A stretch of DNA of 40,236 nucleotides from Actinomycetota bacterium (lineage in GTDB: Bacteria > Actinomycetota > Thermoleophilia > Solirubrobacterales > Solirubrobacteraceae): assembly GCA_005798685.1 (NCBI GenBank), contig SYIT01000126.1:1-40236 (forward strand). The letters are read 5' to 3'. A program made the position numbers and the translations under genes. Of the stretch, positions 6,536 to 31,550 are shown in pieces (position 1 is the stretch's first letter; each line of letters opens with the position of its first letter). Under the pieces are notes generated by a model that saw only the letters and a program-made list of their open reading frames with translations, was not told where the DNA came from and did no database searches.

Positions 6536-7900
6536 GTGAGTGACTCCTCAGAGCCGCCGCTTGGTGGCCAGACGCGGCGTGATCGAGCCCGCGAGTCACA
6601 CACCGTTCGAGCCGCCGGTGTCGCCTCGGCGCAGATGGCGGCGAACATCTTGGCCCTCGTCACGACCGTCGCGCTTGCCCGCGCTCTGGGCACCGCGGAC
6701 TATGGCGAGCTGGCAAGGATGTTCTCAGTCTTCACGATTTTGATGGTGCCCGCCACAGCTCTTCAAGCCGCGGCGGCGCGCGACATGACGCTTGGAAGGC
6801 TCGGGCTTGGTGGCCGCGCCGCCGCGGCTCTTCAGGGCTGGCTTGGGCGAATTCTGATTATCACTGCCGGCCTACTTGTAATCTGCGTCTTACTCCGTCA
6901 CCAACTCGCCGATCTCCTCCAGGTCTCCCAGCCGTGGGCCGCCGCAGTCGTCCTCCCGTCGGCCGCGCTCTGGAGCGCCCTTGCGCTGCAGCGCGGAGTC
7001 CTGCTCGGGGTGAGCGGTTATCGCCCCGTGGCGATCAGCCTGATCGGTGAGCAGACATTCAGGTTGCTTTTCGGTTTAGCGGCCGCGCTGCTTGGAGCGC
7101 AGGTCGGGCTAATTTTCTTCTGCTCGGTTCCGTTGGCGACTCTGCCAATCATTGCCGCCACAGGTTTACTCGCGCGACGGAGACTAGGGCCGTCGGACCA
7201 CAGCCATGCACGCGTAAGCCTGCGCGAGCTGGCAACGCGAAACCCAGTTCCGGTTGCAGCACTAACGCTATTCGCGGTCCTGCAAAACGCTGACGTCATT
7301 GCCGTTGGGCACTTCTTCAACACGACGATCTCTGGTGCTTATGCACAGGCGTCAGTTGCAGCGAAAGGCGTCGTATGGGTTGCCGTCGGGCTTGGCCTCT
7401 ACCTACTCCCCGAGGCCGCGCGCGAAGGCGCGAAGGGCATCGACCCACGGCACCTGCTTACCCGCACAGCCGGCCTGCTGATGCTGATCGCGATTCCGAT
7501 CTTGGCGCTGTTCAGCTTTGCGCCGGAGCTCGTTCTTTCGCTCGTCTTTGGTGACAAGGCAAAACTTGCAGCTCCGGCGCTGCCTTGGCTGGCAGGCGCG
7601 ATGACATGTCTAAGCATCACCTACCTTGCGCTGCAGTTCCTGCTGGCGCTCGGAAGGCGTTCGTTCCTGCCGGCGCTCGTCGTCGGTGCGGTAGCCGTGC
7701 CGCTCGTAGTTGCGCTGCGTGACAGTTCGCTCGAGTCTGTTGCGATTGGACTGCTGATCCTTGATGCGCTGCTCGCGGCCTTGATGCTCGCCCTTTCGGT
7801 CAGCGCGCGTGGGCCGGGCAAACACGGGCTTAGTGAGCAGGACGCCGAAGACTTTGCGCTCGCGGAGTCGAGCGCGGCTGCAGAAGCGGCGATCCCTTAA
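6536..7900 (+). CDS. Wzx-type polysaccharide flippase (MOP/MATE superfamily)
   Basis: A 454-residue multi-pass membrane protein that I assign to the oligosaccharide flippases, which turn lipid-linked sugar units to the outer leaflet. After a charged cytoplasmic start it shows the family-typical first segment (AAGVASAQMAANILALVTTVALARALGTADYGELARM) and about a dozen further hydrophobic helices with positively charged loops. The GTG start is fixed by an upstream TAGCGT and fits the start of homology. Its stop codon shares the palindrome TTAA (7897-7900) with the stop of the convergent acyltransferase. The window has a second flippase at 17811-19343, so two different export substrates, or a divided role, are possible. 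The substrate is unknown. Confidence 0.85.
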   Translation: MSDSSEPPLGGQTRRDRARESHTVRAAGVASAQMAANILALVTTVALARALGTADYGELARMFSVFTILMVPATALQAAAARDMTLGRLGLGGRAAAALQGWLGRILIITAGLLVICVLLRHQLADLLQVSQPWAAAVVLPSAALWSALALQRGVLLGVSGYRPVAISLIGEQTFRLLFGLAAALLGAQVGLIFFCSVPLATLPIIAATGLLARRRLGPSDHSHARVSLRELATRNPVPVAALTLFAVLQNADVIAVGHFFNTTISGAYAQASVAAKGVVWVAVGLGLYLLPEAAREGAKGIDPRHLLTRTAGLLMLIAIPILALFSFAPELVLSLVFGDKAKLAAPALPWLAGAMTCLSITYLALQFLLALGRRSFLPALVVGAVAVPLVVALRDSSLESVAIGLLILDALLAALMLALSVSARGPGKHGLSEQDAEDFALAESSAAAEAAIP

Positions 7901-9108
7901 GCGGCGCCGCGGCGACGCGCAATCCGCGCCGAGGCAGCCTTCGCCCAGCGTCGTCCGAGCGCGATCCCGGGCGCCTCGATCAGGCGGTAGCTGACCGCCG
8001 CCGCCGCCACAGAGCAGACGAACGACGCTCCGGCCACTGCGACCCAGCCGAGATCGTGCAGCCAGCCAACCTCGTTCAGCTTGACGATGAATGCGAGGTG
8101 GTAGAGGTAGAACGAATACGAAACTAGGCCGAGCAGCATCAGCGGCCGCCAGCCGAGAGCCGCTCTCACTCCCCCGCCGAGCGCGCCGCCGAAGACCGCA
8201 GGCGCGAGTACGCAGACGCCGATCAAACCCTTGATGACATGGCGGAAGAGCCCGGCGTCAGCCCAGCTGGTGCCTAGGCCAACAGCGCCAATCTTGACCC
8301 CGAGCAGCGCGTATAGCGCGAGAGCGGCTAGGACCCAGATCCAAGGCTTCCCCTCAACTAGGCGGAGCGCGCGCGGCCGCTTCGATCCACTGTGGACCGC
8401 GACGCTCACAACCGCCATCGCCATTCCGAGCGCAAACTGGTCAGCGAATGCCGGCAGCGAAATCTGGGCGATCAGATAGCCCTGGTCTCCGGGGAGAAAA
8501 AGCGGCGAGACAACCAGCTGCCAGAGAAACGAGGCGCAGAAAAGAGCGGCGAGCGCCCAGAGCTCGCCGCTGATCATCTGCCGCCGTCCGCTTCGAGGCA
8601 GCATGCGGCGAGCAAAGAAAGCCCAAATCGGCAGGGCGATGTAGAAGCTGACCTCAATGCAGAGCGTCCACGCTTGGCCGATGCCGCCAACCACGGTGCC
8701 GATGTCATAGACCTGAAGGAAGCCGAAGTAAGTGACGATCCCACTCGGCGTGAAGACCGACGCTTCAAGACCGAGAATCAGCGTAACGATGACGAGCGCC
8801 ACCCAATAGGCCGGGACGATGCGAAGAGCGCGACGGATCGAATATGGCTCGATGTCCGGCGCGGGTTCCTGCGCGAAGCGTTTTGCGACGAAAGGCCGGT
8901 AGATCAGGAAACCCGAAACGACGAAGAAGATCGGGACTCCAACGTTGAGGTTGCCGAGGTAGCGCGAGAGCAGATCCGTGTTCAGCAGCCCGAGGTGGAA
9001 AACGACGTGGAAAGCAAAGATTGTCAGCGCCGCGATTGCGCGCACGCTGTCAATCAGCGGGAAGCGCGCGTGGCTCGCAACCACCGGCTCTACGCTGGCG
9101 CCGCTCAT
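7897..9108 (-). CDS. Acyltransferase family 3 (O-acyltransferase) membrane protein
   Basis: About 403 residues, an integral membrane acyltransferase of the AT3/OafA-like family, which O-acetylates or O-acylates envelope sugars. FPLIDSVRAIAALTIFAFHV near the N-terminus contains the family Arg and catalytic His. NVGVPIFFVVSGFLIYRPFV follows, and about ten transmembrane helices are seen, with SFYLYHLAFIV near the end. I chose ATG 9108, which overlaps the stop of the upstream gene as ATGA, in place of the ORF-track start 11 codons earlier. No C-terminal SGNH domain is present. It is the last gene of a three-gene minus-strand operon (GT2, GT-C-like, acyltransferase), so it probably decorates the same glycan. 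Confidence 0.9.
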   Translation of the reverse strand: MSGASVEPVVASHARFPLIDSVRAIAALTIFAFHVVFHLGLLNTDLLSRYLGNLNVGVPIFFVVSGFLIYRPFVAKRFAQEPAPDIEPYSIRRALRIVPAYWVALVIVTLILGLEASVFTPSGIVTYFGFLQVYDIGTVVGGIGQAWTLCIEVSFYIALPIWAFFARRMLPRSGRRQMISGELWALAALFCASFLWQLVVSPLFLPGDQGYLIAQISLPAFADQFALGMAMAVVSVAVHSGSKRPRALRLVEGKPWIWVLAALALYALLGVKIGAVGLGTSWADAGLFRHVIKGLIGVCVLAPAVFGGALGGGVRAALGWRPLMLLGLVSYSFYLYHLAFIVKLNEVGWLHDLGWVAVAGASFVCSVAAAAVSYRLIEAPGIALGRRWAKAASARIARRRGAA

Positions 9109-10721
9109 CGCCAGCCTCCCGCCGGAGGCCGAATTTCCCACACCCGCGCGCAGCCGAACCGCCGCGCTGGGCCAAGCGTGATCGGCGCGAGCTTCGCTTC
9201 AAGGTCGGCCGTCACGCGGCAGGAGGCGTAGACGAAGCGTGCGCCAGCTCGCTCCACCAGCGCCTGATCTTCAGCCGCGCTGCCAACGCCGTCGAAGAAC
9301 GCTGTGAGAGCGAGACCGCGCCACGCGAGGTCGGGAGTCCACGACCCGGCGCCGGCCCAAACCTCGCGGCCTGTATAGGCGGAAACGTATGCGCCGTCGA
9401 CGAGCGTCGCCAAGATTCCACCGGCGCCGGGTTGGCGTTCAAGCCACCTCATCGCGTCTCGCTCGCCAGGCTCTAGGAAGAAAGCCTGTCTTCCAGCTTT
9501 GACAGCTCCCCGAATCTGGTCGGCACGGTAGAGCGTGCCGGGAACGACCATCAGGCCAATCGCCACGATCGTCCAAAGCAACGGGAGAGGCTTGCTCCCC
9601 AGCTGGCCCCTAACCGCGATGACGGACAGAATCGCGAGCGGCAGCGCGAGCCCTTGGAAGGCATGGAACGGGAAGGTACCGACCGGCAGATAGAACACGA
9701 GGAGCCCTGCGACAGGCCAGATCCGCAGCATCCACCCAGCGAAATCAAGCGACCGGGCGCGATAGGCGAAAAGCGCCGGAATCGCAAGCGGCGCGAGCCC
9801 GACGACCGTTACCCAGAGCGGCCAGCGCCCGAAGCTGTTGACCTCGCCAGCCAGACGCCACGACGGGTCGAGTTTTGACAGCAGGAAGTAGTAGACGAGC
9901 GGCAACGCGGTTGCGACCATTACCGGCGCGAGCAACCTGCACGAGGTAAGCAGCGCGGAGCGATCCCGTCGATCTGTCATCAACGACGCGCCAATGAGTA
10001 TCAGGGCGAATGTCGCGCCCTGCCACGGCTGGAACCAAGCGACGACGAGGCCTACTGCAGCTGCCGCGACGAGATACCGCCCGCGCCCGCCGCTGCGGGC
10101 TCGCTCGAATGCGAGCAGACCGAGTGGCATCAGACCTACTGCGACCGCCGTGAAGAGGTAACCCCAGAGATATGTCCCCGTCCAGAGTTCGCCACTGACA
10201 AAGTCGAGATCAAACTTTGTTGCCGAACCCGCTGCGCTGGTCCAGCCGACGACGGCGGCGATCGGCGAGGCGAAGAAGAGGCCTAGGATGATCGCGACGC
10301 GGCGATCGCCGGTCCGCGGCAGGAAACGCGACGAGAAGAAGAGCGCTCCGGCGAAGAGCGCTGCGATCGCGACCGGCTTCCAGACCATGTACGCAAGGAC
10401 GACGCCAAAGCCGAGCCGATATAGCGCTCCCGATATCAGCAGCCCTGGGTGAACAAAACTGTGAGGCCCGGGCGCGAGGTCGTAAAGATTGGCTGCGGCG
10501 CCAAAATCGCCTGACTGCCGAAGCCAGCCCACGTACTGCATCGGGTCAAGCACGAGAAAGCCGTCCGCCCCGGTTATCACTCCCCCCTGGGTCCACACGC
10601 GAACAAGCAGCCCGATGAGCGGAGCGACCGCCATTGCAGCAAAGACCGCCAGCACAACCCAATCGCCGCGCGCCATCCGCAGTCGCCGGTACTGCGCCGA
10701 AGGAGTCTCGACCGTGCTCAC
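9105..10721 (-). CDS. GT-C-like polytopic membrane protein, paralogue A
   Basis: A 538-residue protein with about ten or more membrane helices and a periplasmic-type loop early on carrying DGFLVLDPMQYVGWLRQSG, followed by DLAPGPHSFVHPGLLISG. Further landmarks are FVSGELWTGTYLWGYLF and FQPWQGATFAL. A C-terminal soluble part has TGREVWAGAGSWTPDL and ends with RFGCARVWEIRPP. All of these recur in order in the gene at 14627-16279 on the other strand, so the two are paralogues. The layout (acidic first loop, many helices, extracytoplasmic tail) resembles GT-C glycosyltransferases using polyprenyl-phosphate sugars, but I cannot name a family. Its GTG start overlaps the GT2 stop (GTGA), and that GT2 looks like a polyprenyl-phosphate-sugar synthase, a sensible donor maker for it. 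Confidence 0.8.
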   Translation of the reverse strand: MSTVETPSAQYRRLRMARGDWVVLAVFAAMAVAPLIGLLVRVWTQGGVITGADGFLVLDPMQYVGWLRQSGDFGAAANLYDLAPGPHSFVHPGLLISGALYRLGFGVVLAYMVWKPVAIAALFAGALFFSSRFLPRTGDRRVAIILGLFFASPIAAVVGWTSAAGSATKFDLDFVSGELWTGTYLWGYLFTAVAVGLMPLGLLAFERARSGGRGRYLVAAAAVGLVVAWFQPWQGATFALILIGASLMTDRRDRSALLTSCRLLAPVMVATALPLVYYFLLSKLDPSWRLAGEVNSFGRWPLWVTVVGLAPLAIPALFAYRARSLDFAGWMLRIWPVAGLLVFYLPVGTFPFHAFQGLALPLAILSVIAVRGQLGSKPLPLLWTIVAIGLMVVPGTLYRADQIRGAVKAGRQAFFLEPGERDAMRWLERQPGAGGILATLVDGAYVSAYTGREVWAGAGSWTPDLAWRGLALTAFFDGVGSAAEDQALVERAGARFVYASCRVTADLEAKLAPITLGPARRFGCARVWEIRPPAGGWR

Positions 10722-11464
10722 GCAGACCGCCCGCCGCGCGCGGTAGAGCCGACCTGCTTGGCCACATTTGCCTTAGCAGCGAGCAGCTCTCTGATCACCG
10801 GAATCAGGATCCGCCCCATTTGCAGACGTGAGCCTTCGCGGTCGGTCCAGACGATTCCGGTCTCGCTGACTCGGTAACCAAGCGCGCGGGCCATCGCGAT
10901 CGCTTCAGCGTCATAAGTCCAGCCGTCAAGGCTCAGTCGCTCGAAGACGTCCTCGGCCGCCTCGCCGCGCCAAAGCTTGAAGCCGCAGAACAGGTCACGA
11001 GTTGGTTCGCTGAGAATCGCCCGGCAGCACTGCTGGAAGCCACGGCCCACGAAGCGTCGCGGCAGCGTTTGACGTTGACCGAGCTCAGCGCCGGCGGCAA
11101 GTCGCGAGCCAACGACTAGATCGCTCGCTTCGAGCAGCTCAAGCATCTTTGGCAGCGAGGCCAGTGATGGCGCGCAGTCAGCGTCGCAGTGGAGGCGTAT
11201 CTCCCCCCTTGCCTCGAGCATACCGCGGCGAACTGAGAACCCCTTGCCAAGATTGGCGTCGTTGACGAGCAGGCGAATCTTGTCACCATCCAGCAGCGGC
11301 TCGGCATGAGAGCACGTTGCGTCTGTGCTGGCGTTGTCAACGAGCAGAATCTCGTAGCTCTCGCCACGCGCTTCGAAGTAGTCGCGGATGTCGACAACCG
11401 TTCCGGCAACGGCAAACTGCTCGTTAAAGAGCGGCACGACGACTGAAAACCTCGGCTCGGGCAC
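10718..11464 (-). CDS. GT2 glycosyltransferase, dolichyl/polyprenyl-phosphate glycosyltransferase-like
   Basis: A 248-residue GT-A fold family 2 enzyme. The start FSVVVPLFNEQFAVAGTV, the VDNASTDAT donor-binding motif near 40-48, NDANLGKGFSVRRGM near 66-80 and HCDADCAPSL near 90 (DxD-like) are typical of the Alg5/DPM1 group, which loads a sugar onto a polyprenyl phosphate. There is no C-terminal membrane anchor. GTG at 11464 is the start, with TAGGCT seven bases upstream. It leads the operon GT2, GT-C-like protein, acyltransferase, which suggests a three-step route: make a lipid-phosphate sugar, transfer it outside, acylate the product. The donor sugar cannot be told. Confidence 0.9.
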   Translation of the reverse strand: MPEPRFSVVVPLFNEQFAVAGTVVDIRDYFEARGESYEILLVDNASTDATCSHAEPLLDGDKIRLLVNDANLGKGFSVRRGMLEARGEIRLHCDADCAPSLASLPKMLELLEASDLVVGSRLAAGAELGQRQTLPRRFVGRGFQQCCRAILSEPTRDLFCGFKLWRGEAAEDVFERLSLDGWTYDAEAIAMARALGYRVSETGIVWTDREGSRLQMGRILIPVIRELLAAKANVAKQVGSTARGGRSA

Positions 11465-11471
11465 GGCGGTC

Positions 11472-11477
11472 AGCCTA
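11472..11477 (-). promoter_or_regulatory. -10-like element for the GT2 operon
   Basis: TAGGCT seven bases before the GTG at 11464; same hexamer and spacing as at 19351-19356. Confidence 0.5.
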
Positions 11478-11522
11478 CCGGCGCGGGAGCGCAGGCTTGC
11501 ACGGCCGCGTGGCTACCGGCGT

Positions 11523-11528
11523 TAGGCT
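11523..11528 (+). promoter_or_regulatory. -10-like element for the methyltransferase-GT2 operon
   Basis: TAGGCT nine bases before ATG 11538 and only three before GTG 11532; the spacing favours ATG 11538 as the start. Confidence 0.5.
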
Positions 11529-11537
11529 GTTGTGCCG

Positions 11538-13256
11538 ATGACGACGACTGCCACCTGCGGAATCTGCCAGGGCGTGCTCGAACTGCGTTTCGCAGGTTCC
11601 GGCGAGCCACCCCAAGCTGGAGACTTTGCCCCCACCTGCCACAGGCCACGCGCCTATGGCGATCTCTACCGCTGCCGTGAGTGCGGAACGATCCAGCAGC
11701 CGTCACTGCCGGAAGGGGTTGATCTGGTCGACCTCTACCGCGAGATGGGCGACAGCGACTATCTCGCCGAGGAAGCGGGCCGCCGCCTAACTGCAAACTG
11801 GCTGCTCGATCTCGTCGAACGCCGCCGCGCGCCGGGCCGGATGCTCGAGATCGGCTGCGGACATGGGCTGCTGCTCGATGAAGCCCGCCGCCGAGGCTGG
11901 GAGACGCGCGGCCTTGAGCTCTCCGAACGTTCGGCCCGCCACGGCCGCGAAGAGCTGGCGCTGGATATTCGCGAGGAGCCCTTCGAAGCTCTCGGAAATG
12001 AAGAGAACGGCTGCTGGGACGCGCTTCTGATGGTCGACGTGCTCGAGCACCTCGACCATCCGCGCGAAGCAATCGAGCGCGCGACGAAGCTGCTCGCCCC
12101 GGGCGGCGTGCTCTGCATCGTCACCCCCGACCCCGCGTCGCTGACCGCCCGCATCGCCGGGCCGCGCTGGTGGGGCCTGCTGCCCGCTCATACCTATCTG
12201 ATTGCGCGCCGCACGCTGCGCGAGCTGCTGATCGGCCAAGGCTTGATCCTCAGCGATGACGTGCCCCTGGTGCGCAGTTTCTCTGCGCGCTACTGGGTCG
12301 AAGGCTTCGCAGGCATCGCTGGCCCGGCTACCGCTGCCGTGCGCCGCGCGGCAGCCAAACTGCCGCCGCAGCGCTCGCTGGCGCTCTCGCTCGGTGACGA
12401 ACGCGTAATGCTGGCCGTCAACGAGAAAGTCCAAGAGCCGCAGCAGTGTCTAGCGCGGGAGCGCGGAGGTAACGATGAAGTCCACGTTGTGCTGCCCGCC
12501 TACCACGCCGCGCAAACGATTGAGCGGGTCGCCGCCGATCTGCCGATTGAATCTTTTGACCGTGCACTGCTCGTTGACGACGCCAGCGGTGATGACACGG
12601 TCGCAGTGGCGCTCGCAGCAGGCTTTGAAGTGCTGCGCCACCCAGCCAACCGCGGCTACGGCGCCAACCAGAAGAGCTGTTACAGCCGCGCAATCCTTGA
12701 CGGCGCCGACGTGGTCGTGATGGTCCACGCTGACCATCAGTACGACGCCGCGCTCGTGACCGAGATGGTGCGTCCGATCATCGAAGGGCGCGCCGACGTC
12801 GTGATGGGCTCACGGCTGCTCGAAGACCGGGCGATCGCGGGCGGCATGCCGCGCTGGAAGTGGATCGGCAACCGCGCGCTGACCTGGACCGAAAACCGCG
12901 CCTTCACGAAGGACTTCTCCGAGTACCACACCGGCTACCGTGCCTTCTCGACCGAGTTCCTCCGCTCGATCCCGTTTCTGCGCAACAGCGACGGCTTCGT
13001 TTTTGACCAGGAGATCTTCGCCCAGATCGTTGACCGCAACGCGCGCGTAGTTGAGTTGCCGATCCCAACCCGCTACTTCCTTGAAGCTTCAAGCGTCTCA
13101 TTCCGCGCGTCTGTCCGTTACGGGCTTGAAACGCTGACCGTGCTTGCCCGCTACCGGGCCGACGAGAAGCGCCGCCGCTGGTCGTTGCTGCGCAGGCCAG
13201 CCGTTGATCTTCAGCCGAGCGCCCAGAGCGCGCCAAACAGCGAACCGGTTCCCTGA
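11538..13256 (+). CDS. Fusion: zinc-ribbon class I methyltransferase + GT2 glycosyltransferase
   Basis: A 572-residue two-domain protein. Residues about 7-53 form a zinc ribbon (CGIC near 7-10, CREC near 49-52). About 60-300 is a class I SAM methyltransferase with motif I MLEIGCGHGLLLDEA near 100, LMVDVLEHLDHP near 163 and PGGVLCIVTPDP near 190. From about 313 a complete GT2 domain begins: VHVVLPAYHAAQTIERV, LLVDDASGDDT near 346, NRGYGANQKSC near 375, VMVHADHQYDA near 395 and FVFDQEIFAQ near 485. The two activities are usually separate genes; a single open frame joins them here through a short linker (EKVQEPQQCLARERGG). A GT2 that adds a sugar and a partner that methylates it is a plausible reading. 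It leads a four-gene operon of glycan genes. Confidence 0.92.
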   Translation: MTTTATCGICQGVLELRFAGSGEPPQAGDFAPTCHRPRAYGDLYRCRECGTIQQPSLPEGVDLVDLYREMGDSDYLAEEAGRRLTANWLLDLVERRRAPGRMLEIGCGHGLLLDEARRRGWETRGLELSERSARHGREELALDIREEPFEALGNEENGCWDALLMVDVLEHLDHPREAIERATKLLAPGGVLCIVTPDPASLTARIAGPRWWGLLPAHTYLIARRTLRELLIGQGLILSDDVPLVRSFSARYWVEGFAGIAGPATAAVRRAAAKLPPQRSLALSLGDERVMLAVNEKVQEPQQCLARERGGNDEVHVVLPAYHAAQTIERVAADLPIESFDRALLVDDASGDDTVAVALAAGFEVLRHPANRGYGANQKSCYSRAILDGADVVVMVHADHQYDAALVTEMVRPIIEGRADVVMGSRLLEDRAIAGGMPRWKWIGNRALTWTENRAFTKDFSEYHTGYRAFSTEFLRSIPFLRNSDGFVFDQEIFAQIVDRNARVVELPIPTRYFLEASSVSFRASVRYGLETLTVLARYRADEKRRRWSLLRRPAVDLQPSAQSAPNSEPVP

Positions 13257-13264
13257 GCCCCTCG

Positions 13265-14626
13265 ATGGCGCGCGTGCTCGTTGTCTGCGCTGAGCCGATC
13301 GGCCCGCAGGTCGCCGGTCCGGCAATCCGCGCGCTCGAACTGGCTCGCGTGCTCGCCGCCTCACACGAGGTGACGATCGCCGCGCCCGCGCCAAGCCAAA
13401 CCGGCGATGATCGAATCGCACTGGTCGAAGCAGGCTTTGTTGACTACGACGCGCTCTCCGCCGCCGTCGCAGCGTCCGATTTTGTCGCCGCCCAGTCGCT
13501 ACCGCCGCGGCTACTCTCGAAGCTGCCGTCGATGGGAACGCAGCTGATCGCCGATCTCTACAACCCGACCGTCTTCGAAGTGCTCGAAGCTGGCCGTGAC
13601 AAGCCAACCGCGGCGCGCAGGCGCCAGCAGCGCACCGTGACGCTGGCCTCGATTGCGCAGCTCGCCGCCGCATCGTTCGTGATCTGCGCAAGTGAACAGC
13701 AGCGCGACCTTTGGCTCGGCGTGATGGCGGCCGGAGGCCTTATCCAGATCGAGGACTACTCGCGCGACCCGACGCTGCGCTCGGTGATTGATGTTGTGCC
13801 GTTCGGCCTGCCGAGCGAGCCTCCGCTCGCTCCCCCAGCGCTGCCAATCCGATCAATGTTCCCTGCGATCGCAGCGGGGGACCGCATCGTGCTCTGGGGC
13901 GGCGGCGTTTGGAATTGGCTCGACCCCGAAACGGCGATCGACGCGATCGGCCTAATCGAAGAGCGCCGCAGCAGCGGGCCGCGAACGCACCTTGTGATGA
14001 TGGGACTCGGGCGCCCTGCGAGCGAAGAGCTCGACGCGATGCGCGCCGGCCAGCGGATGCTGGGCCACCTGGTGCGCAGCGGGCTTGAGGGCGAGGTTGT
14101 CCACGTGAACCGTGGCTGGGTTGATTACGACGAGCGTGGCGGCTGGCTGCTCGAAGCCGACCTTGGCGTAAGCACCCACCACGACCATCTCGAGAGCCGC
14201 CTCGCCTTCCGGACTCGAATGCTTGATTACATCTGGGCGGCGTTGCCGATTGTGGCGACCAGCGGTGACACGCTGTCGGCGTTGGTCGAGCGTGACGGGC
14301 TTGGACTTACGGTTCCACCGGCTGACAGCGCTGCGCTGGCGCAGGCGATCTCCGAGCTGCTCGATGACCCCGCGCGGTTAGCTGCGGCGGAGCTATCGCT
14401 GCAGCAGCTTGCGCCGCGGATGACCTGGCAGAACTCGGCTGCGGCGCTGGGCGCGATCTGCGCTGGCGAGATCGCGACAGGGGCGCCGGACCGCGCCGCA
14501 CTTCGCCGCGCGACGCTGGCTCAATATCCACCGCTGCTTGCCGAGACCCACGCCACTCACGGCCTTCGCGGCGCCGCCAGCCGCGCCTGGCGCAACCTGC
14601 GTCGCGCGCTCACGCCGGGGCGCTAG
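13265..14626 (+). CDS. GT4-like (GT-B) glycosyltransferase
   Basis: A 453-residue GT-B fold protein. The N-terminal Rossmann start ARVLVVCAEPIGPQVAGPAIRALELARVLA is typical of GT4 enzymes, with the glycine-rich acceptor loop. The C-terminal half has VLWGGGVWNWLDPETAIDAI near 215 and STHHDHLESRLAFRTRMLDYIWAALPIVAT near 310-340, replacing the usual EGFGL-type Glu-rich motif with a less common variant. Distal residues are Arg-rich. Eight bases separate it from the fusion gene, and the next gene starts directly after its stop. A cytoplasmic transferase acting on lipid-linked intermediates is likely; donor and linkage are unknown. Confidence 0.85.
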   Translation: MARVLVVCAEPIGPQVAGPAIRALELARVLAASHEVTIAAPAPSQTGDDRIALVEAGFVDYDALSAAVAASDFVAAQSLPPRLLSKLPSMGTQLIADLYNPTVFEVLEAGRDKPTAARRRQQRTVTLASIAQLAAASFVICASEQQRDLWLGVMAAGGLIQIEDYSRDPTLRSVIDVVPFGLPSEPPLAPPALPIRSMFPAIAAGDRIVLWGGGVWNWLDPETAIDAIGLIEERRSSGPRTHLVMMGLGRPASEELDAMRAGQRMLGHLVRSGLEGEVVHVNRGWVDYDERGGWLLEADLGVSTHHDHLESRLAFRTRMLDYIWAALPIVATSGDTLSALVERDGLGLTVPPADSAALAQAISELLDDPARLAAAELSLQQLAPRMTWQNSAAALGAICAGEIATGAPDRAALRRATLAQYPPLLAETHATHGLRGAASRAWRNLRRALTPGR

Positions 14627-16279
14627 ATGAGCGACGTTCCTGCGCGCCAAAGCCTGCTGACCCGCGCCTGCGCGAAGCTGCGGCTTGATCCGTTCGAGCT
14701 TGGTTGCCTGATCGTCCTGACCGCGTTTGCGTTTGCGCCGCTGATTGCGCTGGCCAGCAAAGGTCGTGATCTCTCGGGAGCCGACGGCTTCTTCGCGACC
14801 GACCAGATGCAATATCTGGCTTGGATCCGTGAAAGCTCCCAGCACATCTTCATTGGCAACCCTTGGGATTTGGCGCCCGGGGAGAGAAGCTTCCTGCACC
14901 CGATCGTACTTATCAGTGGCGCCGCTCACGGACTGCTTGGAATGTCGATTGGGCTTTCGTACCTTATTTGGAAGCCGGTTGCGATCGGCGTTGTGTTCGT
15001 TGGTGCGCTGCTCTACAGCCGTCGGCTCTTAGCGCACGGAGGGGCTCGCCACGCAGCACTGGCGCTGATTCTCTTCGCCGTCGGGCCGGTCGTCGCGCTT
15101 GTTGCGTGGAGCGGCTGGGGCGGCAAGCCGCGCCAATACACCTTCGACTTCATCTCCGGTGAGATGTGGACGGGTCAGTACCTTTGGGGTTACCTGCCGA
15201 CGGCGATCGCGGTTTTCCTGATTCCGCTCGTGCTACTCGGCCTTGAACGGGCTCGCGAAGGCGGCCGCGGCCGTCTGCTGCTGGCTTCAACGGCTGGAGC
15301 GTTCTTAATCTGCTGGCTGCAACCGTGGCAGGGCGCCGAGCTGGCGCTACTGATCTGGGCGGTAGAGCTATGGCGCTGGCTTCGCGGGCAGAGCCGGCCA
15401 GCTTGGCCGATGCTGGCACTGATCAGCGTCGCAAGTGCTCTACCTGCTGCCTATTACTACTGGCTCTCGAAGACCGACCCGGCCTGGGAGCTTGCCGGCG
15501 CGGCCAACAGCGCCGGAGCGCAAGAGCTCTGGTCGTGGCCGTGGTGGGCGATTCTGCTGACGCTCGTTCCACTCGGTGTGCCCGCCCTTCTTGCTTACCG
15601 CATACCGGCCAAAGACTGGCAGCAAAGCGCGCTGCGCTGGTGGCCTGCCGCCGTGCTGCTCGTCTACCTGCTGCCATTTGGCACCTTCCCCTACCACAGC
15701 TTTCAGGGTCTCCAGATTCCGCTCGCCGTCCTAGCCGTCATTGGCGTTCACTCGCGCTGGCCGCGCTGCTCGGTTCCTGTGGCAGTTGTGCTTGCGCTGG
15801 TGATGATCGTGCCGGGAACAATTCACAAGACCACGGTCTTTGGAAACAGCGTCAAGGTTGGCGGCGATCCGTACTTCGTATTTGATGGCGAAGTCGATGC
15901 TCTGGACGCGCTCGAAGGGGATTCGCGCCAAGGCGGCGTCCTCGCACCAACCTACTCCAGCCTTCTCGTGCCGGGGCGAACCGGCCGCGAAACGTGGGTC
16001 GGGCCATTTTCGTGGACGCCCGACTGGGAGCAGCGCGCAACGGCGGTGAACGACCTTTTTGAGGGCCGGCTGACGACCGCGCAGGCCCGCGCAGTCGTAA
16101 TCAAGTCACGCGCCCGCTGGCTCTTCGCCGACTGCCGCCCGCTCGCGACCGCCGTGGTTGAGCGCCAGTTGGCGCCGCTGCTGGCACGGGCGCCGCAGCG
16201 TTTCGGCTGCGCGACGCTGCTTGAGATCCGCGAACGCCCTGAGATGCTGACCGCCGCGCCCGAAGCTCCCGCCAAATGA
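14627..16279 (+). CDS. GT-C-like polytopic membrane protein, paralogue B
   Basis: A 550-residue multi-pass protein starting at the base after the preceding stop. It shares the order of motifs with the gene at 9105-10721: DGFFATDQMQYLAWIRESS in the first loop, DLAPGERSFLHPIVLISGA, YLIWKPVAIGVVFVGALL, FISGEMWTGQYLWGYLP, LQPWQGAELALL, then TGRETWVGPFSWTPDW and the terminal RFGCATLLEIRE. About ten membrane helices are followed by a soluble tail of roughly 150 residues. The invariant Asp in the first loop and the lipid-exposed layout suggest a GT-C-type transferase, but the family has no name I can give. Its own operon also contains a GT2 domain, mirroring paralogue A. Confidence 0.8.
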   Translation: MSDVPARQSLLTRACAKLRLDPFELGCLIVLTAFAFAPLIALASKGRDLSGADGFFATDQMQYLAWIRESSQHIFIGNPWDLAPGERSFLHPIVLISGAAHGLLGMSIGLSYLIWKPVAIGVVFVGALLYSRRLLAHGGARHAALALILFAVGPVVALVAWSGWGGKPRQYTFDFISGEMWTGQYLWGYLPTAIAVFLIPLVLLGLERAREGGRGRLLLASTAGAFLICWLQPWQGAELALLIWAVELWRWLRGQSRPAWPMLALISVASALPAAYYYWLSKTDPAWELAGAANSAGAQELWSWPWWAILLTLVPLGVPALLAYRIPAKDWQQSALRWWPAAVLLVYLLPFGTFPYHSFQGLQIPLAVLAVIGVHSRWPRCSVPVAVVLALVMIVPGTIHKTTVFGNSVKVGGDPYFVFDGEVDALDALEGDSRQGGVLAPTYSSLLVPGRTGRETWVGPFSWTPDWEQRATAVNDLFEGRLTTAQARAVVIKSRARWLFADCRPLATAVVERQLAPLLARAPQRFGCATLLEIRERPEMLTAAPEAPAK

Positions 16280-17853
16280 GCGGGCAACTGAGAGCCGCGC
16301 TGCCAGCCGCAGCCTTGATGCTCGCCGGGATTGTCGTCTGCTCGCTGACCGCGCTGATTGGAATTCAGGTCAACGACGAGGGCTTGATGCTGCAAGCGGC
16401 GGCGCGGATCGCCGGCGGCGAGGTTCCTTACGCGGACTTCTGGTGGTACTACCCGCCGGGCCAGCCTTACCTGCTCGGCGCGCTTTGGAAGATCTTTGGC
16501 CCCTCACTAATTGAGTGGCGCGCGGTGCGCGTTCTCGCAGATGCCAGCGTCGCCGTGCTCGCCTGGCAGCTGGCGCGTCGCTACGCGAGCCCGAAACTTG
16601 CCCTGCTGGCCTGGGCGGTCGCGCTGCTGGCGATGGCCTACCCCAGCGGCCCGCACCCCTTTCCGATTGCGCTCGCTTTGGCTTTAGGAGCGCTGATCTG
16701 CTTCAACAATCGTCCAGTACTTGCCGGCGTGCTGGCCGGCCTCTGCGCGGCCTGGCGGCTTGAGTTCGCGGCCTATCTGGGACTAGGCATTTTGATTTCA
16801 TACGGCGCAGCGCCGACTCCCTTTCGCCGCGGCGGCGCGGCGGCGCGATTCTTGCTCGCCGCGGCGGCCACAGCCGCCGCGGCGTTCCTGCCCGTCGCAC
16901 TGGCAGCAGGAATTCGCACCAGCTGGGATCTGCTGATCGCCTACCCGCTGAACGACTTCAGCGCCTATCAAGGACTGCCACTCGAGCTGATTTACAGCGG
17001 CCCGCTCAACACCGCATCGCTGAGCGGTTTCTTCAGCGACAGTTTTGAGAACCTGCTGCTCTTCTACCTGCCCGTGGTGGTGCTGCTCGGATTCGCTGGC
17101 GGCGCGCTCGCCCTAGTGCTCACGTTCAGCCGCCGGCACGACTACGCACTATTGGCGCTGCTGACTTTTAGCCTTGGCATGGCGCACTATCTGATCGTCC
17201 GCCCCGACGTCTTTCACACCGCGCCGCTGGCGGTCTGCGTTGCAGTGATCGGCGTCATTGCGATTGCGCGCAGCGCAAAGCGCGCCGCCGAGCTCGCCCG
17301 CGGCAAGGCAATCTTGATTCGGGCCGGAGCGTTGATCGCGGCCGCTTCACTGGCGTACGCGCTGGTTGAGGGGCTTGACCGCCAGTTGCTGGTACTTCGC
17401 GAACCGACGATCGCACTGGCGGCGCCAACCGCAAACGGCGTCCGCGCCGCGCCGGCTGTCGCTATTCCGCTGGCAGCGGCTGTAGCCGATGTCCGAAGTA
17501 GAACTGCGCGGGAAGCGCCGATCTATGTGATCGGCCAGCGCGCCGACATCACGACCTCTGGCGCTCCACTCTTCTACACCCTCGCCGAACGGACGAACCC
17601 AACCCGTTACGACATTGCAGCGCCGGGTGTCGTGACCAGCGCACCCGTGCAGGCTGAAATTGTCGCCGACCTTGAGCGCGCAAAACCGAAGCTGATTGTC
17701 CGCTGGCTTTCACCGTTGACCGCCGCGCCGGAGCCAAACCTTGCGGGCCGCTCGTCCGGTGTGCGCCTGCTCGACCGTTACATCAACGCCAACTACGTCG
17801 AAAGCGGCCGCTACGGCGACTGGGTCGTGCTCGAGGCGCGGGCCGCAAACTGA
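16276..17853 (+). CDS. GT39/PMT-like polytopic glycosyltransferase
   Basis: A 525-residue membrane protein overlapping the previous stop as ATGA. The first extracytoplasmic loop reads VNDEGLMLQAAARIAGGEVPYADF and then WWYYPPGQPYLLGALWKIFG, a pattern typical of GT39/ArnT-like GT-C enzymes with catalytic Asp/Glu and the YPPGQP turn. About ten to twelve helices follow, and a C-terminal soluble domain of some 130 residues contains PIYVIGQRADITTSG and ends at a short basic tail. Such enzymes use polyprenyl-phosphate sugars on the outer face. The last 43 bases overlap the convergent flippase gene. Confidence 0.83.
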   Translation: MSGQLRAALPAAALMLAGIVVCSLTALIGIQVNDEGLMLQAAARIAGGEVPYADFWWYYPPGQPYLLGALWKIFGPSLIEWRAVRVLADASVAVLAWQLARRYASPKLALLAWAVALLAMAYPSGPHPFPIALALALGALICFNNRPVLAGVLAGLCAAWRLEFAAYLGLGILISYGAAPTPFRRGGAAARFLLAAAATAAAAFLPVALAAGIRTSWDLLIAYPLNDFSAYQGLPLELIYSGPLNTASLSGFFSDSFENLLLFYLPVVVLLGFAGGALALVLTFSRRHDYALLALLTFSLGMAHYLIVRPDVFHTAPLAVCVAVIGVIAIARSAKRAAELARGKAILIRAGALIAAASLAYALVEGLDRQLLVLREPTIALAAPTANGVRAAPAVAIPLAAAVADVRSRTAREAPIYVIGQRADITTSGAPLFYTLAERTNPTRYDIAAPGVVTSAPVQAEIVADLERAKPKLIVRWLSPLTAAPEPNLAGRSSGVRLLDRYINANYVESGRYGDWVVLEARAAN

Positions 17854-19343
17854 TCAGCGAACTCGCTGCGCCAGCGCTTGACCCCGGCCGGCGTTGGTCT
17901 GATTGAGAGCGAACAGGCCAGAAAGCCAGCCCAGGCAATCGCCGTGACGGCTAACACAACCGCAAGCGCCCAGCCGACGGGGATTGCACTGGCGGCGAGC
18001 GCCGCGAGCGCCCCACCGACGAGCGCGAATAGAACACCCCAGAGAGCCGCCCTTAAAAACGTGGCGGCGGAGCGCTCTTCAATCTCCGGCGCGTGGTCGC
18101 GGAACTTCCGCGTGAACCATGCAGCTCCAAGCAGGTAAGCGAGCAGCGTGCCGGCCACTACGCCGCCGGCACCGAAGATCAGCGCCAGCGGAACCGTGAA
18201 GGCAAGGTTGAGCGCGATCAAGAGAACTGCGAGCCGTGCTTCGAGCGAGCCACTGCCGCGTGCGCGCAGGTATGCGATCCGCACGCCAAAGAGCAGGTTC
18301 GAGCCGTAGGCAGCGATCAGCATTGCAGCAAAGCCACCCGCTAGGGCGAAGCCGCCGCCAAGCCAGCCCCGAATCACCGATGGGGCGATGGCGACGGCGA
18401 TCAGCGTCGCTCCAGTCGTCGCGGTAACCCAAAGCCGATCGACGCTTACAAACGTCCGCCCTAGCGCGACGTGATCAGCGGGTGATTGGAGAGAGGCAAA
18501 GCGATTGAAAATCGGAACCAGCGGCGCAGCGGCAACAAGCCTCCCCGACTCTGCGAGCTGTGAGGCGATGCCAACCTCAGCAACTACTGCCGGTCGCGCC
18601 ACCAGCGCCGTCACGACGCGGTCACTTTGACCGTTGATGATCAGCGAGGCAACTGAGAGTTGGAGCCTTGCCGAGAGGCCCGCGATCGCGATAGCGTCCT
18701 CGCCGCTGACGAACCCAGGCCGCACGCGCAGGCTGCCGGCCGCAAGGAGCGCGCGGCTAACGAGCAAGACGAGCTGCTGCGCTATCACCGTCCAGCCGAG
18801 CTGCGCGAGCGTGGCGCCGGCAGCGACGAGCCAGATCACGGCGGTCAGGTAGCCAATCGAGCCGAGCGCGGCCGTGACGGCAATCGAGGTGAAGCGGCCC
18901 TGGCCTTGGAGCAGGTTCGCGAGCGCCGCCATCGCCAGCCCGAGCGGTACTGCCAGCCCGACGATTCGAAGCAGCTCGGTCGCCTCCTTTTCAAGCCCGC
19001 CTGGGAAGTCAAAGAGGCCTGCGATCTGCGGCGCGAGCAGCTCAATGATCAGTGCCGCGACAATCCCGATGCTGAGGTAGAACGCGAGCGTAGACCAGAA
19101 CACGCGCGCCGCGCCGGCGTGGTCATCGGCTCCACGGGCAAGAGCGATGTAGCGCTGCACCGCGGGCGCCATCCCCGCCTCAATAATGCCGATGTAGATC
19201 ACGATCGCCATTGAGACTGTCCAGACGCCGTAAGCGGCTTTGCCGACGTGATCGATGATCAGCGGCGTCGCAATTAGGACCGCAACGATGCCGATCAGCG
19301 CAGTGATTACGCTGGCACTGATATTTCGTTGGGCGCCCCTCAC
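17811..19343 (-). CDS. Second Wzx-type flippase (MOP superfamily)
   Basis: About 510 residues. I trimmed the ORF-track start (19517) to GTG 19343, because a TAGGCT lies seven bases upstream and homology-like sequence begins right there (RGAQRNISASVITALIGIVAVLIATPLIIDHVGKAAYG). About fourteen hydrophobic helices follow, with a cytoplasmic basic loop pattern as in Wzx/PST transporters; the end is polar (RWRSEFADQFAARA). The 3' end overlaps the convergent GT39-like gene by 43 bases. It is less similar to the first flippase than the GT-C pair are to one another, so a recent duplication is not evident. The substrate is unknown. Confidence 0.85.
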   Translation of the reverse strand: MRGAQRNISASVITALIGIVAVLIATPLIIDHVGKAAYGVWTVSMAIVIYIGIIEAGMAPAVQRYIALARGADDHAGAARVFWSTLAFYLSIGIVAALIIELLAPQIAGLFDFPGGLEKEATELLRIVGLAVPLGLAMAALANLLQGQGRFTSIAVTAALGSIGYLTAVIWLVAAGATLAQLGWTVIAQQLVLLVSRALLAAGSLRVRPGFVSGEDAIAIAGLSARLQLSVASLIINGQSDRVVTALVARPAVVAEVGIASQLAESGRLVAAAPLVPIFNRFASLQSPADHVALGRTFVSVDRLWVTATTGATLIAVAIAPSVIRGWLGGGFALAGGFAAMLIAAYGSNLLFGVRIAYLRARGSGSLEARLAVLLIALNLAFTVPLALIFGAGGVVAGTLLAYLLGAAWFTRKFRDHAPEIEERSAATFLRAALWGVLFALVGGALAALAASAIPVGWALAVVLAVTAIAWAGFLACSLSIRPTPAGVKRWRSEFADQFAARASSTTQSP

Positions 19344-19350
19344 CGCACCA

Positions 19351-19356
19351 AGCCTA
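19351..19356 (-). promoter_or_regulatory. -10-like element for second flippase
   Basis: TAGGCT exactly seven bases before GTG 19343, identical in hexamer and spacing to the GT2 gene at 11464. Confidence 0.5.
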
Positions 19357-19366
19357 CGCGCGCTGG

Positions 19367-19372
19367 TAGAAC
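19367..19372 (+). promoter_or_regulatory. Weak -10-like element for methyltransferase gene
   Basis: TAGAAC seven bases before ATG 19380. It lacks the final T, so it is the weakest member of the series. The whole divergent gap is only 36 bases. Confidence 0.35.
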
Positions 19373-19379
19373 GAACGCG

Positions 19380-20006
19380 ATGGGAGCCATTCGAAACCGC
19401 GCAGTCGCCCTGCTTCCGCTGCGCCTGCGATGGTGGCTTGGGCAGCGACGCGAGTACGAACTCGCGGCTCGCTACCTCGGCGGACTTAGCGGCGTCGAGA
19501 TTGGCGGCAGCGCCCACAACCGCTTTCCGGTCGACGCAATCAACATTGACCGCTACGCGCAGATGGACACGATTTACAAGGACGAGGAGCGGCGACTCGC
19601 GGGAACCGCACTTGCGGTTGATCTCGTTGCGCCCGGTGACGATCTGCCGCTAGAAGACAACTCGGTTGATTTCGTTCTCGCCTCACACGTGATTGAACAC
19701 TTCCCCGACCCGATCAAGGCACTGCTCGAATGGAAGCGCGTCGCGACCGACTACATCTTTCTCGTCGTCCCCCACCGCGACCGCACCTTTGATTCGGACC
19801 GCGAGCTAACGCCGGTAGACGAGCTGCTCCAACGCCACGCAAGCGGATTTGGATCTGACGAGGACCGGCACTGGTCGGTCTGGAGCTGCGAATCGTTCGT
19901 TGAGCTGTGCCAGCGGATTGGGCTCAACGTCGTTGAAACCGAGGACCCGGACAAGAAGGTCGGCAACGGCTTTGCGGTTGTGATCGCGGTCAGCGCTGAG
20001 CGCTAG
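19380..20006 (+). CDS. Class I SAM-dependent methyltransferase-like protein
   Basis: A 208-residue protein from ATG 19380; the 17 codons before it in the ORF track are antisense to the flippase start. After a basic N-terminus, GVEIGGSAHNRFPVDAINIDRY near 40-62 is a modified motif I, and the middle reads LPLEDNSVDFVLASHVIEHFPDPIKALLEWKRV near 98-130, the classic post-I and motif-II pattern of methyltransferase families 11 and 23. VVPHRDRTFDSDR follows. SAM binding is likely; the acceptor, probably a sugar in this context, is inferred. The tail overlaps the O-antigen ligase stop by 17 bases. Confidence 0.83.
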   Translation: MGAIRNRAVALLPLRLRWWLGQRREYELAARYLGGLSGVEIGGSAHNRFPVDAINIDRYAQMDTIYKDEERRLAGTALAVDLVAPGDDLPLEDNSVDFVLASHVIEHFPDPIKALLEWKRVATDYIFLVVPHRDRTFDSDRELTPVDELLQRHASGFGSDEDRHWSVWSCESFVELCQRIGLNVVETEDPDKKVGNGFAVVIAVSAER

Positions 20007-25142: not shown

Positions 25143-25846
25143 GGCCGCGCGTCTGGCTTTGGCCCCGGCGGCTTGGCGGCGCCGCGGCCTTCGGTTTGCT
25201 CGGCAACGTTGCGGGCTGGCACCGCTTCAGCTTCGCGCTGCGATTCGACCGCAGCCTGATCGGGTGAACCGTCGGCGAGCATCTGCGGCAGTCGTGAGAA
25301 GTCTTCGCGCAGCAGCTCCAAGTTCGGCCTGCGGTAAAGCGCGGCGGCCGGGTGAAAGACGGGATAGAGCCTGACGGTCCTTCCACCAAGTGAGCGTAGC
25401 TCTGCTTGGCCATGGATCACTGTAATTCCCGCATCATCCTGGCGCAGCAACTTGGTCGCGAAGTTACCGAGCGTGACTACAACGATCGGCTCAACCAATC
25501 TGATCTGCCCGATCAGAAACGGTGAGCAGTTCGCAATCTCATCGCTGCGGGGGTCGCGGTTCTCCGGCGGCCTGCACTTAAGAACGTTGGCTATGTACAC
25601 ATCGTCGCGGGTCATCCCGATTCCTGCCAGCAGTTCGCCAAGTAGCTTGCCCGACGCGCCAACGAACGGAACGCCCTCGCGATCCTCACCCGCGCCGGGC
25701 GCCTCACCAACAAACATCAGATCCGCATCGCCGTCCCCAGCCCCAAACACGACCTGGCTACGACTGGCAACAAGCTGAGGGCACTTCTCGCAAGCCTCAG
25801 CCGACGCCCGCAGCTCACGTTCAGCCGAGCGCCCGTCAGCCGCCAT
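25124..25846 (-). CDS. Type 4 uracil-DNA glycosylase (Fe-S)
   Basis: About 240 residues from ATG 25846, overlapping the upstream gene by 11 bases; the ORF-track start lies eight codons earlier. It removes uracil from DNA. Motifs are ACEKCPQLVASR near the N-terminus (first two cluster cysteines), MFVGEAPGAGEDREGVPFVGASGKLL near 42-67 (the catalytic GEAPG loop), IANVLKCRPPENRDPRSDEIANC near 85-107 (the other two cysteines), VTLGNFATK near 123 and YPVFHPAAAL near 160 (the DNA-intercalating HPAA loop). The C-terminal 40-50 residues are a Pro/Ala-rich extension beyond the family core. A DNA repair gene at the end of a glycan operon has no obvious functional link. Confidence 0.94.
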   Translation of the reverse strand: MAADGRSAERELRASAEACEKCPQLVASRSQVVFGAGDGDADLMFVGEAPGAGEDREGVPFVGASGKLLGELLAGIGMTRDDVYIANVLKCRPPENRDPRSDEIANCSPFLIGQIRLVEPIVVVTLGNFATKLLRQDDAGITVIHGQAELRSLGGRTVRLYPVFHPAAALYRRPNLELLREDFSRLPQMLADGSPDQAAVESQREAEAVPARNVAEQTEGRGAAKPPGPKPDARPQLDLF

Positions 25847-30041: not shown

Positions 30042-30052
30042 CAAGAGCAGCG

Positions 30053-30058
30053 ATGATA
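30053..30058 (-). promoter_or_regulatory. -10-like element for the aftD-like gene
   Basis: TATCAT 11 bases before ATG 30041, the best match to TATAAT in the series. It lies in the 151- to 178-base gap behind the methyltransferase gene, in which I see nothing else definite. An internal promoter here would let the giant gene be expressed separately. Confidence 0.45.
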
Positions 30059-30219
30059 CGCGAAGCAAAGTCGCTCACTGACACGGCGGCCGGTTCCACT
30101 TAAAGCGCTGGAGCCGAGGTCAATTGAGCCTATTCGCAGCATGCCACCACTCGTGAGTCCCAAAGCTCGATTCCGGGAAGGCCAGATTCTCCCGCACGAC
30201 GAACTGATTGGGGCTGAAC

Positions 30220-30969: not shown

Positions 30970-31550
30970 GCAGCCGCCTTCATCACTCGGAGCCGAAAGC
31001 GGATTTCTTCCGGGGTTAGGAGCGTTGCGAAGAAACGCTCGAAGATCACTGGCTCGACGTTGATCAGATGATCGAGCCAGCTGAGAACCGCGAAGTTGGA
31101 GAAATGGAACCTCTTTGATTCAACGACGAATCGCGCCGGGCTCTGATAGTTCGTACGCCCTGACAACTTCCAGCGCTCATAGAACTTCAAGTTGCGATCA
31201 CCTAGAAACTCGTAGTTGTCGAAACTGCGAATCCCAAACGGAATGCGATGGTCGGGCTCGGAGTAGAACTTGGTTGATAGGAAGAACGGAACAGCCACGT
31301 CGATCAGCGCGTCGGGTTCACAGATCCGCCATAGCTCGGTGACGACTGCGTTGAAATTGTCGAGGTGCTCGAGCACGTGCGAGGCGCTCACTTCGGCGAC
31401 GCTGTTGTCCTCGAACGGCCACGGATAGCTGTTGAGGTCGATGATTTCATTACCGCCGTAGTCGGCGATGTCGACGTTCACCCATCCGGAGCGCACGTCG
31501 GCGTTGCAGCCGAGGTTCAACCTCAGCGGGCCGCCAGCGCGATCAGCCAC
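30966..31550 (-). CDS. Small class I methyltransferase-like protein
   Basis: A 194-residue protein with LRLNLGCNADVRSGWVNVDI near 10-29 (motif I, with Asn following the GC), then IIDLNSYPWPFEDNSVAEVSASHVLEHLDN near 36-65 and a conserved-looking tail (FSEPDHRIPFGIRSFDNYEF type). This pattern is common among putative glycan methyltransferases in polysaccharide clusters. The GTG start overlaps the gmhB stop by eight bases, and the stop overlaps the next methyltransferase. Substrate unknown; heptose or a later glycan residue is an inference from the neighbours. Confidence 0.83.
   Translation of the reverse strand: MADRAGGPLRLNLGCNADVRSGWVNVDIADYGGNEIIDLNSYPWPFEDNSVAEVSASHVLEHLDNFNAVVTELWRICEPDALIDVAVPFFLSTKFYSEPDHRIPFGIRSFDNYEFLGDRNLKFYERWKLSGRTNYQSPARFVVESKRFHFSNFAVLSWLDHLINVEPVIFERFFATLLTPEEIRFRLRVMKAAA

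What the first reader, a model, noticed from the sequence alone, without database searches (positions are those of the whole stretch)
9105..16279. Mirrored paralogues of an unnamed GT-C-like family in divergent operons
The proteins at 9105-10721 (minus) and 14627-16279 (plus) share an ordered set of motifs (DGF..D.MQY..W.R; SGE.WTG.YLWGYL; QPWQGA; TGRE.W; RFGCA) over their whole length. Each sits in an operon with a GT2 domain, on either side of one divergent promoter region. It looks like duplication with each copy paired to its own donor enzyme.
Basis: partly seen in the sequence, partly recalled or inferred. Interest (0 to 1): 0.5.

Follow-up and report, generated by a model that had tools for sequence, protein, structure and literature searches.

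The report
Ancient pair of unnamed membrane glycosyltransferases
Two related membrane proteins, each encoded near a different enzyme that probably loads sugars onto a lipid carrier, look like an old pair of outward-facing sugar-transferring enzymes of a familiar fold but an unnamed family, found almost only in one order of actinobacteria.

Summary
The proteins at 9105-10721 (-) (GA) and 14627-16279 (+) (GB) are full-length paralogues: 44% identity over 527 aa, E 8e-136. All five quoted motifs are present. Neither matches Pfam, NCBIfam, PHROGs or PDB by sequence. AlphaFold models (pTM 0.87 and 0.89) match GT-C glycosyltransferases only: 24 of 24 and 27 of 27 PDB hits at E<=1e-3. GT-C is therefore well supported as a fold; activity is inferred.

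The duplication story needs correcting. GA and GB form separate, strongly supported clades spanning several genera, so the split predates those genera. They belong to a larger family with up to seven copies per genome, seen almost only in the window's order (Solirubrobacterales). The neighbouring GT2 domains were not duplicated with them (26% identity, different subfamilies). Gene order ties GA to one GT2 and GB to a methyltransferase-GT2 fusion, but in one genus GA has left its GT2. The plus operon also holds another GT-C (PMT_2-like).

Best reading: outer-leaflet, polyprenyl-phosphate-sugar-dependent transferases decorating a surface glycan. New member of a known kind.

The parts
9105..10721 (-). 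GA: 538-aa GT-C-fold membrane protein, paralogue A; candidate catalytic Asp59; invariant Cys501/Cys524 in the C-terminal domain
   Evidence: 44% to GB; AF2 pTM 0.89; PDB fold hits all GT-C; conservation
14627..16279 (+). GB: 550-aa GT-C-fold membrane protein, paralogue B; candidate catalytic Asp59; invariant Cys503/Cys528
   Evidence: AF2 pTM 0.87; PDB fold hits all GT-C; conservation
10718..11464 (-). GT2a: 248-aa GT2, likely polyprenyl-phosphate-sugar synthase; 4-bp overlap with GA start
   Evidence: PF00535 1.4e-20; PDB dolichol-P-mannose synthase 5mlz 7e-11 and ArnC 9e-7; overlap from coordinates
7897..9108 (-). Acyltransferase-3 membrane protein, last gene of the minus operon; ATG at 9108 overlaps the GA stop by 4 bp (the longer ORF begins at 9141)
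   Evidence: PF01757 2.8e-20; adjacent to GA also in genera g11 and g19
11532..13256 (+). MTGT2: methyltransferase fused to a GT2 domain (residues about 317-515), likely a second polyprenyl-phosphate-sugar synthase
   Evidence: PF13489 2e-23 and PF00535 2.5e-14; AglJ 1.6e-26, PpgS 8.3e-23, both below the curated cut-offs; N-terminal half matches sugar 3-C-methyltransferases of the TcaB9 type
13265..14626 (+). GT4 glycosyltransferase between MTGT2 and GB
   Evidence: PF13692 2.4e-9
16276..17853 (+). Third GT-C in the locus, PMT_2-like (NDE...YYPPGQP motif); 4-bp ATGA overlap with GB; fused in frame to the GB homologue in L005
   Evidence: hhalign PMT_2 family vs its homologues 95.4%, 1.9e-8; fusion ORF of 1060 aa
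11465..11531 (.). Divergent intergenic gap, 67 bp, with opposed TAGGCT boxes (minus 11477-11472, plus 11524-11529) and TTGCAC between them (11497-11502), largely conserved in the genus
   Evidence: sequence; alignment of relatives; no sigma-70 consensus found
6536..7900 (+). Flippase-like protein (Polysacc_synt, below gathering score), candidate for moving lipid-linked sugars
   Evidence: PF01943 5e-4; next to the cassette in g1
17811..19517 (-). MATE-type flippase-like protein at the other end of the cassette
   Evidence: PF01554 1.8e-10

Best explanation
GA and GB are GT-C-fold glycosyltransferases with the active site facing out of the membrane. A cytoplasmic GT2 enzyme (GT2a, or the GT2 domain of MTGT2) loads a sugar onto polyprenyl phosphate. 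A flippase, possibly 6536-7900 or 17811-19517, turns it over. GA or GB then transfers the sugar onto a surface glycan outside, with Asp59 in the first external loop as the base. The two copies come from an old duplication and were kept near different donor enzymes, so they most likely add different sugars or act at different positions. Shown by computation: paralogy, predicted fold, conservation, conserved gene order, age relative to genera. Inferred: catalysis, donor type, orientation, acceptor, and which GT2 feeds which GT-C.
For: 44% identity end to end. GB and GA models of good quality match only GT-C enzymes at E<=1e-3: OST STT3/AglB/PglB, DPY19, AftA, ArnT, ALG12, EmbB; other membrane proteins start only at E about 0.04-0.06. 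Asp59 in 60/60 rows with a letter, right after the first TM helix (GB 22-43, then helix 57-72); His357 60/61, Asp/Glu179 58/61, Asp/Glu284 58/61. In the GT-C enzyme PimE the catalytic base is D58 and no DxD motif is present (PMC12041525); GB has no DxD either. GT2a resembles dolichol-P-mannose synthase and ArnC; the MTGT2 GT2 domain resembles AglJ and PpgS. GT2 + flippase + GT-C is the known three-component layout (PMC8035078; PMC11127046). GB occurs with MTGT2 in 17/17 genomes and GA with GT2a in 14/14; 23 of 42 genomes lack all four. In G040, which lacks GA and GB proper, the GT2a homologue follows a YfhO-type GT-C gene. GA and GB clades 100/100 in the reduced tree.
Against: No sequence-level link to any named GT-C family: Pfam, NCBIfam, PDB and hhalign against PMT_2 and YfhO all negative. 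TM-scores are mostly 0.39-0.53, so the fold assignment is to a superfamily. The GA-GT2a pairing is broken in genus g11. Co-occurrence is not corrected for relatedness and links GB to GT2a as well as to MTGT2. No experiment.
Confidence: 0.72

Rival explanations
1. GA and GB are oligosaccharyltransferase- or ligase-like: they move whole glycan chains from a polyprenyl-diphosphate carrier onto protein or polymer.
For: The closest structural matches by E-value are oligosaccharyltransferase catalytic subunits STT3 and AglB, with PglB further down. The neighbourhood holds flippase-like proteins and a Wzy/ligase-type protein, so diphosphate-linked chains are likely made here.
Against: No WWDxG motif in any of 61 family members. 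The neighbouring GT2 enzymes resemble monophosphate-sugar synthases. ArnT, AftA, DPY19 and ALG12, which use monophosphate donors (general knowledge), match about as well.
Confidence: 0.13
2. Only one copy is a working transferase; the other is a non-catalytic partner or regulatory subunit keeping the GT-C fold, and the two may work as a heterodimer.
For: GA and GB occur together in 13 genomes. Catalytically silent GT-C-fold proteins exist (PIGU; PMC12041525).
Against: The candidate catalytic Asp59, His357 and acidic 179 are kept in both copies, so neither shows the decay expected of a dead copy. In genus g11 the GA and GB genes have moved apart.
Confidence: 0.1
3. The pair is a recent local inverted duplication of a GT2 + GT-C unit.
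For: Mirror-image placement around one divergent gap in the window.
Against: Each copy's orthologues form a strongly supported clade across genera. The two GT2 domains are only 26% identical. The sister status of the two clades within the family is weakly supported (84/55).
Confidence: 0.03

Closest known systems
GT-C(A) glycosyltransferases: STT3/AglB/PglB, AftA, ArnT, DPY19, ALG12 (superfamily of membrane transferases using lipid-linked sugars)
   Same: Predicted fold matches these and nothing else at E<=1e-3; conserved Asp after the first TM helix.
   Different: No sequence or profile similarity found; no WWDxG motif of oligosaccharyltransferases; own small C-terminal alpha/beta domain with two invariant cysteines.
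Three-component (multi-component) transmembrane glycosylation systems (GtrA/GtrB/Gtr; CsbB/GtcA/YfhO; GT136 systems)
   Same: A polyprenyl-phosphate-sugar-type GT2, flippase-like proteins and a GT-C protein in one locus (PMC8035078, PMC11127046).
   Different: Two GT-C paralogues of an unnamed family plus a PMT_2-like one; one GT2 is fused to a sugar-methyltransferase-like domain; no GtrA-type flippase was identified.
YfhO family (PF09586)
   Same: Large GT-C-type membrane protein found beside a GT2a homologue in G040.
   Different: GA and GB do not match the profile (best member E 4.2; hhalign 0.4%) and are shorter.
PMT_2 / ArnT-like family (PF13231)
   Same: The neighbour at 16276-17853 belongs near this family (hhalign 95.4%).
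   Different: GA and GB do not (hhalign 1.6%).

Membership tests
GT-C glycosyltransferase superfamily | GT-C fold: multi-helix membrane core with a loop and helix after TM1 | tested here: met
   Two AF2 models; all PDB matches at E<=1e-3 are GT-C. Predicted, not solved.
GT-C glycosyltransferase superfamily | Conserved acidic residue in the first external loop | tested here: met
   Asp59 in 60 of 60 rows with a letter. External side inferred from the fold match, not shown.
GT-C glycosyltransferase superfamily | Sugar transfer from a lipid-linked donor | not testable with these tools
   Only gene context (GT2 neighbours) speaks for it.
GT66 oligosaccharyltransferases (STT3/AglB/PglB) | WWDxG motif | tested here: not met
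   0 of 61 family members.
PMT_2 (PF13231) and YfhO (PF09586) | Match to the family profile | tested here: not met
   No Pfam match of note in 17 members; hhalign 1.6% and 0.4%.
Three-component glycosylation system | Polyprenyl-phosphate-sugar synthase (GT2) in the locus | tested here: met
   GT2a matches dolichol-P-mannose synthase and ArnC; MTGT2 matches AglJ/PpgS below cut-off. Similarity, not activity.
Three-component glycosylation system | Dedicated flippase for the lipid-linked sugar | tested here: inconclusive
   Two flippase-like proteins flank the cassette; they may serve the glycan chain instead.
Recent mirrored duplication | Both GT2 and GT-C duplicated, copies diverging within the window's own lineage | tested here: not met
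   GT2 domains 26% identical; GA and GB clades each span genera.

The most novel reading that the evidence does not exclude
The family found here would found a new GT-C sequence family limited to Solirubrobacterales, in which an old duplication put two paralogues under different donor enzymes, one of which supplies a methylated sugar through a fused methyltransferase-polyprenyl-phosphate-sugar synthase. It would be a natural experiment in how GT-C enzymes change donor.
Probability: 0.35. Interest if true: 0.55.

Novelty: new member of a known kind. Interest (0 to 1): 0.36.

Why it matters
It adds a GT-C family that current profile libraries do not name, with a clear set of invariant residues to test. 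The conserved cassette gives two paralogous transferases with different candidate donor enzymes, useful for learning what sets donor choice. The surface glycans of this actinobacterial order seem little studied: one full-text search for their glycosyltransferases and cell wall found nothing on point.

Tried and rejected
Sequence routes to a named family failed: Pfam, NCBIfam, PHROGs, phmmer and hmmsearch against the PDB. hhalign against PMT_2, YfhO and the neighbouring GT-C gave nothing, with flippase, ligase and acyltransferase profiles as controls; STT3 could not be tried this way because too few bacterial sequences were found. A recent local duplication was rejected by the trees. A mirrored duplication of the GT2s was rejected. 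Co-occurrence was tried as a way to assign donors and cannot separate them. The weak hit outside the order (G727, E 4.5e-10) is a protein with a GGDQY...YPPGFH pattern, possibly another GT-C; it has no Pfam match and was not followed further. Four-fold sites are near saturation between species and did not help. No plasmid record matched GB.

Full report
Observation. The two ORFs lie where stated. GA (9105-10721, minus, 538 aa) and GB (14627-16279, plus, 550 aa) align over 527 residues with 44% identity and E 8e-136. Every motif quoted is in both. Chance is excluded. The assembly (1.77 Mb, 78% complete) holds just these two members.

Locus. On the minus strand run GT2a (10718-11464), GA and an acyltransferase-3 (to 7897). 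On the plus strand run MTGT2 (methyltransferase fused to GT2, 11532-13256), a GT4, GB and a further membrane protein (16276-17853). GT2a-GA, GA-acyltransferase (from the ATG at 9108) and GB-16276 overlap by 4 bases each, and GT4-GB abut, so both sides look like tightly coupled operons (and coordinates). The gap between the operons is 67 bases. It carries opposed TAGGCT boxes, largely conserved in the genus alignment, but the sigma-70 scan found nothing, so promoters are only suggested.

Family. Neither protein matches Pfam, NCBIfam or PHROGs, or any PDB sequence to a useful degree. Among 201 genomes of the order, 32 carry members, up to seven each. A profile search of 299 genomes of the class and 397 of the phylum found members only in the order, apart from one weak partial hit. 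These are samples of larger groups. Public relatives are Solirubrobacterales or related actinobacterial MAGs.

Fold. AlphaFold2 gave good models: GB pLDDT 85, pTM 0.87; GA pLDDT 86.5, pTM 0.89. Against the PDB, every match at E<=1e-3 was a GT-C enzyme, 24 for GB and 27 for GA. TM-scores normalised by the query are 0.39-0.53, apart from 0.35 for one EmbB entry, so this places the superfamily, not a family. Unrelated membrane proteins appear only from E about 0.04 upwards, which serves as an internal control. Profile comparison did not link the family to PMT_2 or YfhO, while it did link the neighbour 16276-17853 to PMT_2 at 95.4%. So the locus holds three GT-C-type proteins.

Residues. Across 61 members, Asp59 is invariant where a letter is present, and it starts the helix after TM1 in the GB model. 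In PimE the catalytic Asp58 is in the comparable place, and that enzyme works without a DxD motif (PMC12041525). His357 and two acidic positions (179, 284) are nearly invariant. Cys503 and Cys528 (GA 501 and 524) are in all 61 rows and lie next to strands of the C-terminal domain, so a disulphide outside the cell is likely, by inference.

Age and partners. In the 61-row tree GA orthologues form one clade (12 rows, 100/100) and GB orthologues another (21 rows, 100/98). GA comes from genera g1, g11, g16 and g19; GB from these and from G037 of another family of the order. A 29-row tree separates them at 100/100. The duplication therefore predates those genera, unless the cassette has moved between them. 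Whether the two clades are each other's nearest relatives is weakly supported (84/55). The gene order GT2a-GA-acyltransferase facing MTGT2...GB is kept in g1 and g19, and in g16 with the acyltransferase elsewhere in the cluster. In g11 MTGT2 is followed by up to three tandem GB-like genes, GT2a stays facing it, and GA with its acyltransferase lies on another contig or, in G057, some 30 kb away. In G037 the GB homologue and the 16276 homologue are one 1060-aa ORF; this rests on one contig.

Donors. GT2a matches dolichol-phosphate mannose synthase (7e-11) and ArnC. The MTGT2 GT2 domain matches AglJ and PpgS below their cut-offs, and its first half matches sugar 3-C-methyltransferases. The two GT2 domains are only 26% identical to each other. 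So the GT-C gene was duplicated and its donor enzyme was not, and each copy is now found near a different one. In 42 chosen genomes GB occurs with MTGT2 in 17 of 17 and GA with GT2a in 14 of 14. I assigned presence by hand from those tables, contig ends explain some gaps, and the Fisher values ignore relatedness. Co-occurrence fits GB with GT2a equally well, so gene order is the better guide, and it is not absolute.

Possible exchange of GB. Between the window and the relative G144, GA is 81% identical and MTGT2 93%, but GB only 67% and 16276 only 60%. In the GB tree the window lineage falls outside G013, against the other cassette genes; holding the expected group together is rejected at p 0.02. 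The test was named after seeing the tree, so this is a lead, not a result.

Verdict. A real, old pair of GT-C-fold proteins of an unnamed family, probably outer-leaflet sugar transferases fed by two different polyprenyl-phosphate-sugar synthases. The kind of system is known; the family and its pairing are new details.

Noticed in passing
window 25836-30068 (-): 1410-aa protein with an AftD-type GT-C domain (PF11847, 1.1e-88) and an AftD carbohydrate-binding module, the arabinofuranosyltransferase family known from mycobacteria, in a Solirubrobacterales genome.
   Followed up: no
window 31543-33759 (-): Heptose cassette: GmhB-like phosphatase, GmhA-like isomerase and HddA-like kinase, best NCBIfam matches but below the equivalog cut-offs; suggests a heptose-containing surface glycan.
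   Followed up: partly
L005:1342-4446: GB homologue and PMT_2-like GT-C homologue in one 1060-aa reading frame; single contig, could be an assembly error.
   Followed up: partly
L054 and L055 (G045, G057): Three tandem GB-like genes after MTGT2, with a further diverged copy next to the PMT_2-like gene.
   Followed up: partly
window 14627-17853: GB and the next gene are far more diverged from same-genus relatives than the rest of the cassette, and the GB tree conflicts with it: possible allele exchange.
   Followed up: partly
window 11465-11531: Opposed TAGGCT boxes around a TTGCAC in the divergent gap, largely conserved in eight same-genus loci.
   Followed up: partly
family-wide; GB Cys503 and Cys528 (window 14627-16279): Two cysteines in the C-terminal domain invariant in 61 of 61 members, likely a disulphide.
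   Followed up: partly
L111 (G040): A GT2a homologue directly after a YfhO-type GT-C gene, in a genome without GA or GB proper.
   Followed up: partly
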